Assembly (NCBI RefSeq): GCF_900176605.1 | Contig: NZ_FXLP01000005.1 | Coordinates: 1 to 64,000 of the forward strand | Direction: 5' to 3' | Origin: Peptoniphilus vaginalis | GTDB lineage: Bacteria > Bacillota > Clostridia > Tissierellales > Peptoniphilaceae | Length of the DNA: 64,000 bases | Shown here: piece after piece, positions 6,701 to 49,536 of the stretch | Layout: the number at the start of each line of letters is the position of its first letter | How positions within the stretch are numbered: the stretch's first letter is position 1 | Position numbers and translations under genes: made by a program | The notes under the pieces: model-generated | What the model saw: the letters and a program-made list of their open reading frames with translations, nothing else | Databases searched by the model: none | Told to the model about the DNA's origin: nothing

Positions 6701-6845
6701 GTTGACTTAGTAAAAAATTGTGAGTTTATAAAAATTTATGAAGTTATAAAAGATTATGAGTTTGTAAAAAGATTATGAAGTTGTAAAAATTTATGAAGTT
6801 GTGAAAGTTTATTAACTTATAAAATAATATGAGTTTGTAGTTTCT
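6701..6845. repeat. 18-bp-period intergenic array, locus 1 (eight units)
   Basis: Eight head-to-tail degenerate units start at 6701, 6719, 6737, 6755, 6774, 6792, 6810 and 6828. Seven are exactly 18 bp and one is 19 bp. The consensus is TATGAAGTTGTAAAAATT. There are no spacers, so this is not a CRISPR array. The rest of the 6645-7035 gap is plain AT-rich sequence. Confidence 0.85.
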
Positions 6846-12480: not shown

Positions 12481-12732
12481 GTAAAGATTTAAGATTAAAA
12501 CCAATTTATAAATACAAATATATGATATGACAATTAAATGAACAAAGGGATAAAGAATACTTGCAATATAGAAGATTATAGACTAATATAATTGTATAGT
12601 AATGATACAGAGGAATTGATGAAATCCAAAACTCTTTTATAGGATTAAACAGTAAAAGACCTCAGTATTTAGATTTTGTCCCTTTGTTTTTGTATTATTC
12701 TAAATTTTCTAAAACCAAGGAGGGTTTCAGTT

Positions 12733-15700
12733 ATGAGAAGGAAATTTCAAGAACCTATAATTAAAAGAATAAGGAAAACGATGTTAGGTAAAAATAAATT
12801 TCGTCTTTTGACGGCAACACTTGCCTTTACAATGCTAACATCCTCTTTCTATTATCCTTTAAAAATGGATGTAGTAGCAGCTAGTGGCAACCCACAAGTG
12901 GGGGGGGGGTTTTAGAGGTGCAGATGAAGATACATCTGCAAATCAAACCTTTGATAACTCCAAAATCAAAGATGCTAACTCTAAAACTCTTTCAGACATA
13001 CTAAAATCATTACCGGAAAAGGTTGAAAACAACAGTAAAGTCAAAGATAAAATGACTGAGCTGGGGGATAAGACACAGGTAAAAGCCGGCGAGATAAAGG
13101 AAATCAAGGAATTTGGTGGCTGGACTGCAATTAAAGGTGGTGAGTCCGAAAATGAAGAAGGCAAATTTGCCATTGCCAAGAAAACTCAGTATGGATTCTT
13201 TCCTATAGGAACAATAAATGTCACAAGAGCTCAAGGAAAAGAGGGAGGAAAAGAAGAGGCTTTCGTACAAGAAAGTGTCCTTGACACAAAAAATAATGAC
13301 TATACTCTTCTATTAGGCAAAACTGTAACAGGAGCTAATAGAGATGAACCAGCTCATGATGGTACTCCATATAAACATACAGGTGAAGGCGGTGATATTG
13401 CAAGAAATGTAAAGGGATTTAATGGTATAGAAAAAACCTTTAAAGCCTATTCTCCAGAAACAGGTTCAAATGTTAAAGTTGGGTTCAAAATAGGTTATAC
13501 AGGAGATATTAATGGTAAAAAAGCCAAATATAAAGTAGTAGTTCTTGCTCATACTAAAGATGGACAATGGGAAAGTAAATATTTAAAAGTATTAGATCCA
13601 ACAAAAAACACTTCAGAAGTGAAAGCAGCAAAAGATGGAACTGTTAGTCAATTGGACGTCACAGGATTGACCAAAGAACAAGCGGAAGCAAAAATAAATA
13701 ATGATAAAAAAGTACCTAACGGAACAGTTGGCACATTTCTTAGTGAAGACATCCAACTACCTGTAGGAGCAACAGAATATAAGGTAAAAATTTCTATAGG
13801 AGATCAAGATAGGTTGGGTATGAGCTACCAATCCAAGTATCAATTATACGCACTTCCTATAAGTGGAGCTGATTTTAATATAACTCAAGATACGAGACAA
13901 TTGGCGAAATCGCTTTTCACTCAAATTTACAATAAGCTGCTCGAAGAAAAAGCTGAAGATATAAAAAACAAGACACCGGAAAGTATCGCGGCTTATGAGG
14001 CTGAGTTGGAAAAAATGAAAGCCTTAGTTGACTCGACGGAGCTAAATAGCAAGGCTGATTATGTAACAGCACTAGAGAAAGTTGAGCAAACACATAAGAA
14101 CTTAGTAAGCCCGATCCTCGATCTTGTTGCTCCGGCGACGAAAGTGCCTGTAAAGAACCCGGCCCAATTAACGGAACAAGAAAAACAAGCCGTGAAAGAC
14201 GCGGTGAAAGACGCGAACAAAGGCTTGAACTTGGACGACAAGGACATCACTGTCGATAACGATGGAAAAGTCACTGTCAAGAAGGGCGATAAAACCGGCA
14301 CCATCGAAGCAGGCAATGTCGTGGAAGAAAGCAAAGTGCTCGATCTTGTTGCTCCGGCGACGAAAGTGCCTGTAAAGAACCCGGCCCAATTAACGGAACA
14401 AGAAAAACAAGCCGTGAAAGACGCGGTAAAAGACGCGAACAAAGGCTTGAACTTGGACGACAAGGACATCACTGTCGATAAGGACGGAAAAGTCACTGTC
14501 AAGAAGGGCGATAAAACCGGCACCATCGAAGCAGGCAATGTCGTGGAAGAAAGCAAAGCTCTCGATCTTGTTGCTCCGACGAAGAAAGTAGCCGTAAAGA
14601 ACTCGGCCCAATTAACAGAACAAGAAAAACAAGCCGTGAAAGACGCAGTAAAAGACGCAAACAAAGGCTTGAACTTGGAAGACAAGGACATCACTGTCGA
14701 TAACGATGGAAAAGTCACTGTCAAGAAGGGCGATAAAATCGGCACCATCGAAGCAGGCAATGTCGTGGAAGAAAGCAAAGCTCTCGATCTTGTTGCTCCG
14801 ACGAAGAAAGTAGCCGTAAAGAACCCGGCCCAATTAACAGAACAAGAAAAACAAGCCGTGAAAGACGCAGTAAAAGACGCAAACAAAGGCTTGAACTTGG
14901 AAGACAAGGACATCACTGTCGATAACGATGGAAAAGTCACTGTCAAGAAGGGCGATAAAATCGGCACCATCGAAGCAGGCAATGTCGTGGAAGAAAGCAA
15001 AGCGCTCGATCTTGTTGCTCCGACGACGAAAGTAGCCGTAAAGAACCCGGCTCAATTAACGGAACAAGAAAAACAAGCCGTGAAAGACGCGGTAAAAGAC
15101 GCGAACAAAGGCTTGAACTTGGAAGACAAGGACATCACTGTCGATAACGACGGAAAAGTCACTGTCAAGAAGGGCGATAAAACCGGCACCATCGAAGGCG
15201 CCAGCGTCGTGGAAGAAAGCAAAGTGCTCGATCTTGTTGCTCCGACGACGAAAGTAGCCGTAAAGAACCCGGCTCAATTAACGGAACAAGAAAAACAAGC
15301 GGTTAAGGATGCAATAAAAGAAGCAAATCCAACTTTAAAATTAGAAGATGCAAATATTGATGTAAAAGACAACGGAGAAGCAGTAGTAACAAAAGATGGA
15401 AAAAAAGCAACAGTACCAGCAAATCAAGCTGTAAGTCAAGACAACGAAAGTCAAGATAGTTATATACCAGGTTATGGGGATTATTTCCCAGGTGGAATTA
15501 AAATTAAAGAATACTCCACTCCAACACATCCAGTAATAGTATCTATTCCTAAGAAATCAGAAGAACTTGTTAAGGGAAAAGGAGAAAGTCTATGGTACGT
15601 ATTCCATATAGATAAACTTGAGTATGATGTTGTTATAAATGGTGTTACAACTAAAAGAACAATGGATATCACGCCTATAATTAGTAAAGGTAGAACTATG

Positions 15701-16012
15701 GTACCACTTAGATATGTTGCAGAGGTTATTGGAGCTGAAGTTAAGTGGGATGCAGAAACTAGAACAGCATCTTTTACTAAGAATGGATTAACTGCAAGTA
15801 TTCAAATTGATGGAGATGAAATAGTCCTTTCTAATGGCAAGACTATTAAAATGGATTCAAAACCACTTATTGTCAAAGATAGGATGTTAGTTTCTGTTGT
15901 TAATCTAGCCAATGTGTTTGGTCTTACTAATGGAAATGAACAAGATAAAAAAGATCAAGATATTGAATGGAATCAAGAAGTCAGAACAGTTACAGTTTAT
16001 GTTAAGAGATAA
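12733..16012 (+). CDS. Large repeat-rich surface protein, frame broken at a G10 tract (candidate phase-variable adhesin)
   Basis: The ATG at 12733 (AAGGAGGG site) opens a signal peptide ending near VVAASG. The frame then meets ten Gs (12900-12909) and stops at TAG 12913-12915. The remaining 1,040 residues are open in another frame from 12884 to 16012. With nine or twelve Gs the two join as NPQVGGGFRGADED and give 1,092 aa. Order: signal peptide; a beta-rich region of unknown type; a FIVAR-like helical stretch (13900-14110); five complete 74-residue repeats plus a partial sixth; a linker; and a C-terminal copper-amine-oxidase-N-like stalk domain (from about 15590, with GRTMVPLRYVAEVIGAEVKW). 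No LPXTG or SLH motif is seen. A sequencing error in the homopolymer is the main alternative to a true OFF state. Confidence 0.8.
12900..12909 (+). repeat. G10 homopolymer
   Basis: Ten consecutive Gs occur in a genome that is otherwise AT-rich, 24 bases after the predicted signal-peptide cleavage region. The present length puts the downstream frame out of phase with the signal peptide. Confidence 0.9.
14117..15298 (+). repeat. 222-bp in-frame tandem repeats (five full, one partial)
   Basis: Units start at 14117, 14339, 14561, 14783, 15005 and 15227. Each full unit encodes 74 residues beginning LDLVAP and containing NPAQLTEQEKQAVKDAVKDAN and DITVDNDGKVTVKKGDK. Units are nearly identical at the DNA level and visibly richer in G+C than the gene around them. 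The sixth unit keeps this style only to about 15298 and then continues in AT-rich codons. Confidence 0.92.
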
Positions 16013-16182: not shown

Positions 16183-16236
16183 TCATAAACTTATAAATTT
16201 TCATAAACTTATAAATTTTCATAAACTTATAAAGTC
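16183..16236. repeat. 18-bp-period intergenic array, locus 2
   Basis: Two identical units of TCATAAACTTATAAATTT (16183-16200 and 16201-16218) are followed by a third that matches for 15 bases. More degenerate units continue to about 16290. This is the reverse-complement orientation of the locus 1 family. Confidence 0.8.
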
Positions 16237-29561: not shown

Positions 29562-29587
29562 AAAAAAGAGATGGTTTCCCATCTCTT
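29562..29587 (-). terminator. Terminator of the TlpA-like gene
   Basis: Read on the minus strand, AAGAGATGG and CCATCTCTT form a 9-bp stem with a 4-base loop followed by a T run (complement of 29562-29567). It lies 113 bases past the stop, so the 18-bp array between them would be transcribed. Confidence 0.85.
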
Positions 29588-29590
29588 AAT

Positions 29591-29697
29591 AAATTTTTAC
29601 AAGCTAGTAATTTCTTATGACTTTGTAAATTTTTACAAGCTAATGATTTTTTTGACTTAGTAATTTTTTATAAGTTTGTAAATTATTATGAGCAAAA
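29591..29697. repeat. 18-bp-period intergenic array, locus 3 (six units)
   Basis: Units start at 29591, 29609, 29627, 29645, 29662 and 29680; five are 18 bp and one is 17 bp. They resemble AAATTTTTACAAGCTAGT. The array sits between the TlpA-like gene stop and its terminator. Confidence 0.75.
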
Positions 29698-49374: not shown

Positions 49375-49536
49375 TATGAGTTAACAAATATTTATAGACT
49401 TGTAAAAATTTATGAAGTCGCAAAAATTTATGAAGTCGCAAAATTTTATGAAGTCGTAAAAGATGAAAAAGTTGTAGGACTTTATGAAGTCATAAAAGTT
49501 AAAAAAGTTGAAGGATTTTGTAAAGTCGCATAGGGT
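49375..49536. repeat. 18-bp-period intergenic array, locus 4 (nine units)
   Basis: Nine contiguous units of exactly 18 bp start at 49375, 49393, 49411, 49429, 49447, 49465, 49483, 49501 and 49519. The clearest is TATGAAGTCGCAAAAATT. Degenerate units seem to extend upstream to about 49285. In the 49034-49640 gap this leaves only the carB leader and the downstream promoter as other features. Confidence 0.88.

What the first reader, a model, noticed from the sequence alone, without database searches (positions are those of the whole stretch)
12898..12915. G10 tract just after a signal peptide puts a giant surface protein out of frame: candidate phase variation
Seen: ten Gs (12900-12909) in an AT-rich genome, lying directly between a signal peptide in one frame and about 1,030 codons of surface protein in another. 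Nine or twelve Gs give one protein of 1,092 aa or one more residue. Known: poly-G slippage switches surface genes on and off in several mucosal bacteria. Inference: this copy is in the OFF state and would make only a 60-residue peptide. A homopolymer miscount in the assembly is the main competing explanation.
Basis: partly seen in the sequence, partly recalled or inferred. Interest (0 to 1): 0.78.

Follow-up and report, generated by a model that had tools for sequence, protein, structure and literature searches.

The report
Poly-G switch after signal peptide
A run of ten Gs sits where a large bacterial surface protein passes from its export signal to its working part and puts it out of frame; similar runs lie at other surface genes in this bacterial family, so it is most likely a random on/off switch of a kind already known from other bacteria.

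Summary
Ten Gs (12900-12909) separate a signal peptide in one frame from 1,033 open codons in another. The next longest G run in the window is 6. The genome has five runs of 8 or more, all 9-12 long; extrapolation from 180 kb of it gives 0.11 runs of 9 or more.

The tract belongs to a set. In the same genome G9 lies inside the signal peptide of an SLH-domain protein (in frame), and G12 lies between TTGACA and TAGAAT before a leucine-rich surface protein. Of 85 G9+ tracts read in the family, 27 abut secreted proteins of 500 aa or more, against about 1% of random sites. Of 84, 12 sit in a good promoter spacer, against 5 of 1,862 short G runs. Nine of 85 interrupt the 5' part of a secreted gene, five out of frame.

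Best reading: slipped-strand phase variation, this copy OFF. Length variation at this locus could not be tested; an assembly miscount remains possible. The mechanism is known; its use in this family was not found in the papers searched.

The parts
12541..12688 (+). 5' leader with a 14-nt inverted repeat (arms 12541-12554 and 12675-12688); role unknown
   Evidence: no Rfam match at gathering score for L001, which holds it
12717..12723 (+). ribosome-binding site AAGGAGG, 9 nt before the ATG
   Evidence: read from the sequence
12733..12915 (+). signal-peptide reading frame, 60 aa, ending in TAG 12913-12915 (the OFF product)
12900..12909 (+). G10 tract, about six residues after a likely signal-peptidase site (VAA|S, judged by eye)
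12910..16012 (+). open frame of the mature surface protein, 1,033 codons after the tract, out of frame with the signal peptide
12914..14122 (+). N-terminal domain shared with surface proteins of four Streptococcus genomes (43-47% in three, 32% over a part in the fourth) and two other genomes of the family (46-49%); moderate CBM-like fold prediction
14117..15439 (+). six atypical Rib (aRib) domains; 222-bp tandem repeats of 96% matches over 14117-15321
15635..15949 (+). C-terminal Cu_amine_oxidN1 domain, related to several other proteins of this genome
16036..16081 (+). terminator-like stem-loop
   Evidence: 4 such sites found in the region, 2.4 expected

Best explanation
The G10 tract is a contingency switch. 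During replication the polymerase slips on the run and daughter cells gain or lose single Gs, which changes the frame in which the signal peptide runs into the mature protein. In the sequenced copy the frames do not match, so translation ends after 60 residues and the aRib-repeat surface protein is not exported (OFF). In cells whose tract has another length the protein is made and displayed. The genome holds other tracts of the same kind, one inside a signal peptide and one between the -35 and -10 boxes of a surface gene, so subpopulations would show different combinations of surface proteins. Shown here: the tract, the frame break, the otherwise intact frame, and the placement of such tracts in the family. 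Inferred: slippage and switching at this locus, and export and display in the ON state.
For: (1) Rare tract: five G9+ runs in 1.88 Mb against 0.11 expected. (2) Placement: of those five, one is here; one is inside the signal peptide of an SLH/SSSPR-51 protein, in frame; one is TTGACA-21 nt with G12-TAGAAT, 159 bp before a 998-aa LRR/Cu_amine_oxidN1 protein; one is 230 bp before a 1,374-aa secreted protein. (3) Family: 27 of 85 G9+ tracts abut a secreted protein of 500 aa or more, against 50 of 5,400 and 58 of 5,055 random sites (Fisher 4e-31 and 5e-29). Promoter with at least 10 of 12 matches and the tract in the spacer: 12 of 84, against 5 of 1,862 G4-6 runs (p 1e-13); with at least 9 of 12: 16 of 84 against 25 of 1,862. 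Some of the 12 are related copies, so the p-values overstate. (4) Same design elsewhere: signal peptide, G tract, long ORF in 9 of 85. Three (window, L134, L142, in three genera) break the frame soon after the signal peptide; L071 and L073 (one genome) break it at about codon 123; four are in frame. All nine have 700 or more codons downstream; of 15 control G4-6 runs with as many, none is out of frame (p=0.003). (5) Length change: L149 and L174 match over 6,942 bp at 99.94% with one gap of two bases; their tracts are G12 and G10. Paralogs L071/L073 (G16, G10) and two of L087 (G11, G9) differ with 91-95% identical flanks. (6) The out-of-frame ORF is undecayed. (7) Six relatives of the N-terminal domain carry signal peptide and domain in one frame, with no G run of 5 or more at that place, so the two halves belong together.
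Against: No length variation was seen at this locus: one genome, no reads. The domain is in 1 of 14 genomes of the genus (this one) and in 3 of 130 of the family, the other two without a tract, so no orthologous tract exists to compare. By the automatic rule 47 of 85 tracts do not abut a predicted secreted gene (29 'none', 18 'up_noSP'); these include the window and other out-of-frame cases that the rule cannot see, but also prophage-like and unexplained places. Signal peptide followed by a run is not more frequent for G9+ (9 of 85) than for G4-6 runs (145 of 1,636; 109 of 1,180) at 150 or more downstream codons; what differs is the out-of-frame share (5 of 9 against 19 of 109, p=0.017; at 300 or more 7 of 54, at 500 or more 3 of 25, at 700 or more 0 of 15). 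G9+ runs occur in 45 of 98 genomes across the class (three of them of this family), so their count alone is no hallmark. Some related tracts have equal length (G11/G11 with identical flanks, G9/G9, G10/G10). The signal-peptide call is a home-made heuristic.
Confidence: 0.8

Rival explanations
1. Assembly miscount: the real tract has another length, the gene is simply ON, and the apparent frame break is a homopolymer error.
For: Homopolymers are the commonest error of several sequencing methods (recalled). The downstream frame is intact over 1,033 codons, as expected if it is expressed. The other coding tract at a large surface gene of this genome is in frame. The length differences seen between related tracts could in part be errors too.
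Against: It explains only the length, not why the few long G tracts sit at surface genes and promoter spacers. A miscounted tract could still be a phase-variable one caught ON. Five of nine such tracts, in four genomes, are out of frame, which would need repeated errors.
Confidence: 0.12
2. Fixed frameshift: the tract lengthened once, the gene is dead and has not yet decayed.
For: No orthologous tract is available that shows switching.
Against: No further stop in 1,033 codons, where a random sequence of this composition would hold about 26; a long tract is unstable by nature (recalled); several unrelated genes of the family share the design. A recent event would also leave the frame intact.
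Confidence: 0.05
3. RNA-level rescue: polymerase or ribosome slippage on the G run makes some full-length protein from the out-of-frame gene, so the tract acts as a dimmer and not as a switch.
For: Long homopolymers are known sites of transcriptional slippage (recalled). The intact frame fits.
Against: Does not explain tracts in promoter spacers or different lengths in nearly identical DNA. It may act together with slippage of the DNA.
Confidence: 0.05
4. Internal start: translation begins at GTG 12884 or later, in the frame of the mature part, so the tract is irrelevant.
For: An open GTG exists at 12884.
Against: It would lack the signal peptide, and by eye no ribosome-binding site precedes it. 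Relatives have signal peptide and domain in one frame.
Confidence: 0.02

Closest known systems
pilC1/pilC2 of Neisseria (translational phase variation by poly-G)
   Same: Poly-G run in the 5' part of a surface-protein gene; the frame decides ON or OFF (passages of PMC5320596, which list pilC tracts of G9 to G15 among strains). That the pilC run lies in the signal-peptide region is recalled.
   Different: Another lineage and an unrelated repeat protein; variation among strains not seen here.
fetA and porA of Neisseria (homopolymer in the promoter)
   Same: Transcriptional switch by the length of the tract between -10 and -35; passages of PMC5320596 describe it for fetA and list porA. The C4 tract of this genome and several in the family have this layout.
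   Different: Other lineage and genes; promoter activity not measured. The window tract itself is not of this type.
Campylobacter G/C-tract contingency genes
   Same: G/C tracts within and between genes (start of the abstract of PMC8355987 in a search listing).
   Different: 5 tracts here, and 1 to 10 G8+ tracts in the 11 tract-bearing genomes of the genus.
Rib/alpha-like repeat surface proteins (aRib, PF18938)
   Same: Six aRib domains in tandem.
   Different: No LPXTG motif; the protein ends in a Cu_amine_oxidN1 domain.

Membership tests
Poly-G translational phase-variable locus (pilC type) | G/C tract of 9 or more (cut-off used in PMC5953494, passage) | tested here: met
   G10
Poly-G translational phase-variable locus (pilC type) | tract in the 5' part of the coding region, where its length sets the frame | tested here: met
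   codon 56; out of frame as sequenced
Poly-G translational phase-variable locus (pilC type) | rest of the gene intact | tested here: met
   1,033 open codons
Poly-G translational phase-variable locus (pilC type) | tract length varies between strains or cells at this locus | not testable with these tools
   one genome per species, no reads; no orthologous tract
Poly-G translational phase-variable locus (pilC type) | reversible change of expression | not tested
   needs culture
Poly-G promoter-spacer locus (fetA/porA type), for the window tract | tract between -35 and -10 | tested here: not met
   the window tract is coding and reaches 7 of 12 promoter matches; the C4 tract of the same genome meets it
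LPXTG-anchored Rib/alpha-like protein | Rib-type repeats | tested here: met
   aRib, six stretches, E 3e-105
LPXTG-anchored Rib/alpha-like protein | C-terminal LPXTG sorting signal | tested here: not met
   no LPxTG/A/S motif in the 1,042 aa; tail is the Cu_amine_oxidN1 domain

The most novel reading that the evidence does not exclude
A whole family of bacteria (by my inference Gram-positive anaerobic cocci that live on people) uses a poly-G phasome: G tracts in promoter spacers and at signal-peptide junctions of large adhesin-like proteins, and also in DNA-modification genes (a DNA methylase in L089, a type I specificity subunit in L169), so single cells differ at random in surface coat and perhaps in methylation.
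Probability: 0.6. Interest if true: 0.68.

Novelty: new member of a known kind. Interest (0 to 1): 0.58.

Why it matters
If true, clonal populations of these poorly studied bacteria are mixtures of surface types, as in Neisseria and Campylobacter. That would bear on how they persist on a host, why strains of one species behave differently, and why gene calls split these genes. It also gives a concrete set of loci to test in existing reads. In the held papers I found no report of phase variation in Anaerococcus, Peptoniphilus, Finegoldia or Parvimonas (listings; broader listings 28, 29, 50, 51). The four pair searches list 7, 3, 4 and 9 papers, some more than once; I looked at the passages in four of these papers, where the words stand apart, and did not open the others. 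The genus names are my guess at the organism's relatives.

Tried and rejected

Dropped before counts: of 145 G9+ tracts in the family (my tally; the 115 outside the genus re-added) I read all 30 of the genus and 55 of the other 115. The 55 come from the 14 genomes with 3 or more tracts and at least 90% completeness; G079 (fragmented, 4.5 Mb, 4 tracts) and G097 (87% complete, 3 tracts) were left out, and so were all genomes with 1 or 2 tracts outside the genus. This favours tract-rich genomes. One of the 85 drops out of the promoter test for lying too near an end (84). The controls (1,636 runs; 1,180 runs) differ by their margin at the ends of stretches. The 'same loci' random control leaves out the own-genome loci.

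Full report
What is there. Ten Gs at 12900-12909 follow a signal peptide read from ATG 12733. That frame ends at TAG 12913-12915, three bases after the tract. The mature protein lies in another frame and is open for 1,033 codons to 16012; the other two frames hold 92 and 79 stops. It consists of a 403-residue N-terminal domain, six aRib domains (222-bp repeats) and a C-terminal Cu_amine_oxidN1 domain, and a terminator-like hairpin follows. It has no LPXTG motif. Seven further places in the genome encode relatives of that C-terminal part at E below 1e-12.

Is it chance? In the window the next longest G run is 6. In nine 20-kb stretches of the same genome no G or C run exceeds 6. A genome-wide pattern search finds five runs of 8 or more G, of lengths 10, 9, 9, 10 and 12, where 0.11 of 9 or more were expected.

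The set in this genome. C1:361950 is G9 inside the signal peptide of a 777-aa protein with SLH and SSSPR-51 domains, in frame. C4:74479 is G12 in TTGACA-21-TAGAAT, 159 bp before a 998-aa LRR and Cu_amine_oxidN1 protein. C1:710009 is G9, 230 bp before a 1,374-aa secreted protein without Pfam match, with weak promoter hexamers. C3:33428 is G10 in an intergenic stretch upstream of a murB-like gene (name recalled) and stays unexplained.

The set in the genus and family. G8+ tracts occur in 11 of 14 genomes of the genus, 39 in all. G9+ tracts occur in 66 of 120 genomes and 29 of 39 genera of the family. I read 85 G9+ tracts (30 of 30 in the genus, 55 of 115 elsewhere, the latter from tract-rich genomes). 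By an automatic rule, 38 of 85 lie before or in the start of a gene with a signal peptide and 27 next to one of 500 aa or more. Random sites give 301 and 50 of 5,400 in this genome, and 275 and 58 of 5,055 in the other loci. The rule misses out-of-frame cases such as the window. Promoters with at least 10 of 12 matches and a spacer of 15-21 that holds the tract: 12 of 84, against 5 of 1,862 runs of 4-6 G and 19 of 7,175 runs of 3 G; several of the 12 are related copies. The pattern TTGACA, 5-12 nt, G5+, TAGAAT is found 5 times in 2 of 14 genomes of the genus, and its reversed control never.

The window's design recurs. A signal peptide, a G tract, then a long ORF: nine of 85. Out of frame: window (G10), L134 (G9), L142 (G11), and L071 and L073 (G16 and G10, paralogs, tract at about codon 123). 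In frame: L024, L088, and two in L141 (all G9). Among control G4-6 runs the out-of-frame share is 19 of 109, 7 of 54, 3 of 25 and 0 of 15 with at least 150, 300, 500 and 700 codons downstream; all nine tracts have 700 or more. On the other hand, signal peptide plus run is not itself more frequent than for short runs (9 of 85 against 145 of 1,636 at 150 or more codons).

Does length vary? At this locus I could not test it. Elsewhere, L149 and L174, from genomes of two species of one genus, agree over 6,942 bp at 99.94% with two mismatches and one gap of two bases; the tract is G12 in one and G10 in the other. Paralogous tracts with 91-95% identical flanks differ too (G16/G10; G11/G9). Other related pairs are equal (G11/G11 with identical flanks; G9/G9 twice; G10/G10). 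Sequencing error could contribute to each difference.

How it most likely works. Slipped-strand mispairing on the G run changes the frame and switches export of the repeat protein on and off. This is the mechanism of pilC in Neisseria, and the promoter-spacer tracts match the mechanism of fetA (passages of PMC5320596). Shown: anatomy and placement. Inferred: slippage and switching here.

Novelty. The mechanism is known. Its use by this family was not found in the held library (listings; four listed papers checked by passages). One older survey of homopolymers in prokaryotes was searched by terms and names neither Finegoldia nor Anaerococcus (PMC2831843). I file it as a new member of a known kind.

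Noticed in passing
L089:4054-5914 (+): DNA methylase gene (PF01555) behind a G10 tract at about codon 55 of the upstream ORF, in another frame: candidate phase-variable modification gene.
   Followed up: partly
L169:3020-4605 (-): G10 tract at the junction of two ORFs that both match the type I specificity domain Methylase_S: candidate switch of DNA-methylation specificity.
   Followed up: partly
L067, L072, L076, L083, L090, L094 (bases just upstream of the G tract): By eye, an ATTGTA...TACAAT-like inverted repeat or half of it lies a few bases before the G tract of several surface genes: possible operator.
   Followed up: no
L068, L075, L079, L183, L144: Small genes with G8-G11 runs that look phage-like by eye; of the eight proteins scanned only L144 matched a phage family (major head protein).
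   Followed up: partly
G000:C3:33428-33437 (L026:5429-5438): G10 in a GC-richer intergenic stretch of the same genome; no Rfam match at gathering score.
   Followed up: partly
6703-6839, 16183-16233, 29585-29691, 49385-49528: Similar 18-nt tandem repeats (ATAAACTT / TTATGAAGTT type) at four places of the window.
   Followed up: no
14117-15321: 222-bp repeats at 96% match could also change the protein's length by recombination.
   Followed up: no
12553-12588: A 36-nt part of the 5' leader matches two places in one other genome of the genus at 86% and nothing else in the window (24-nt core); function unknown.
   Followed up: partly
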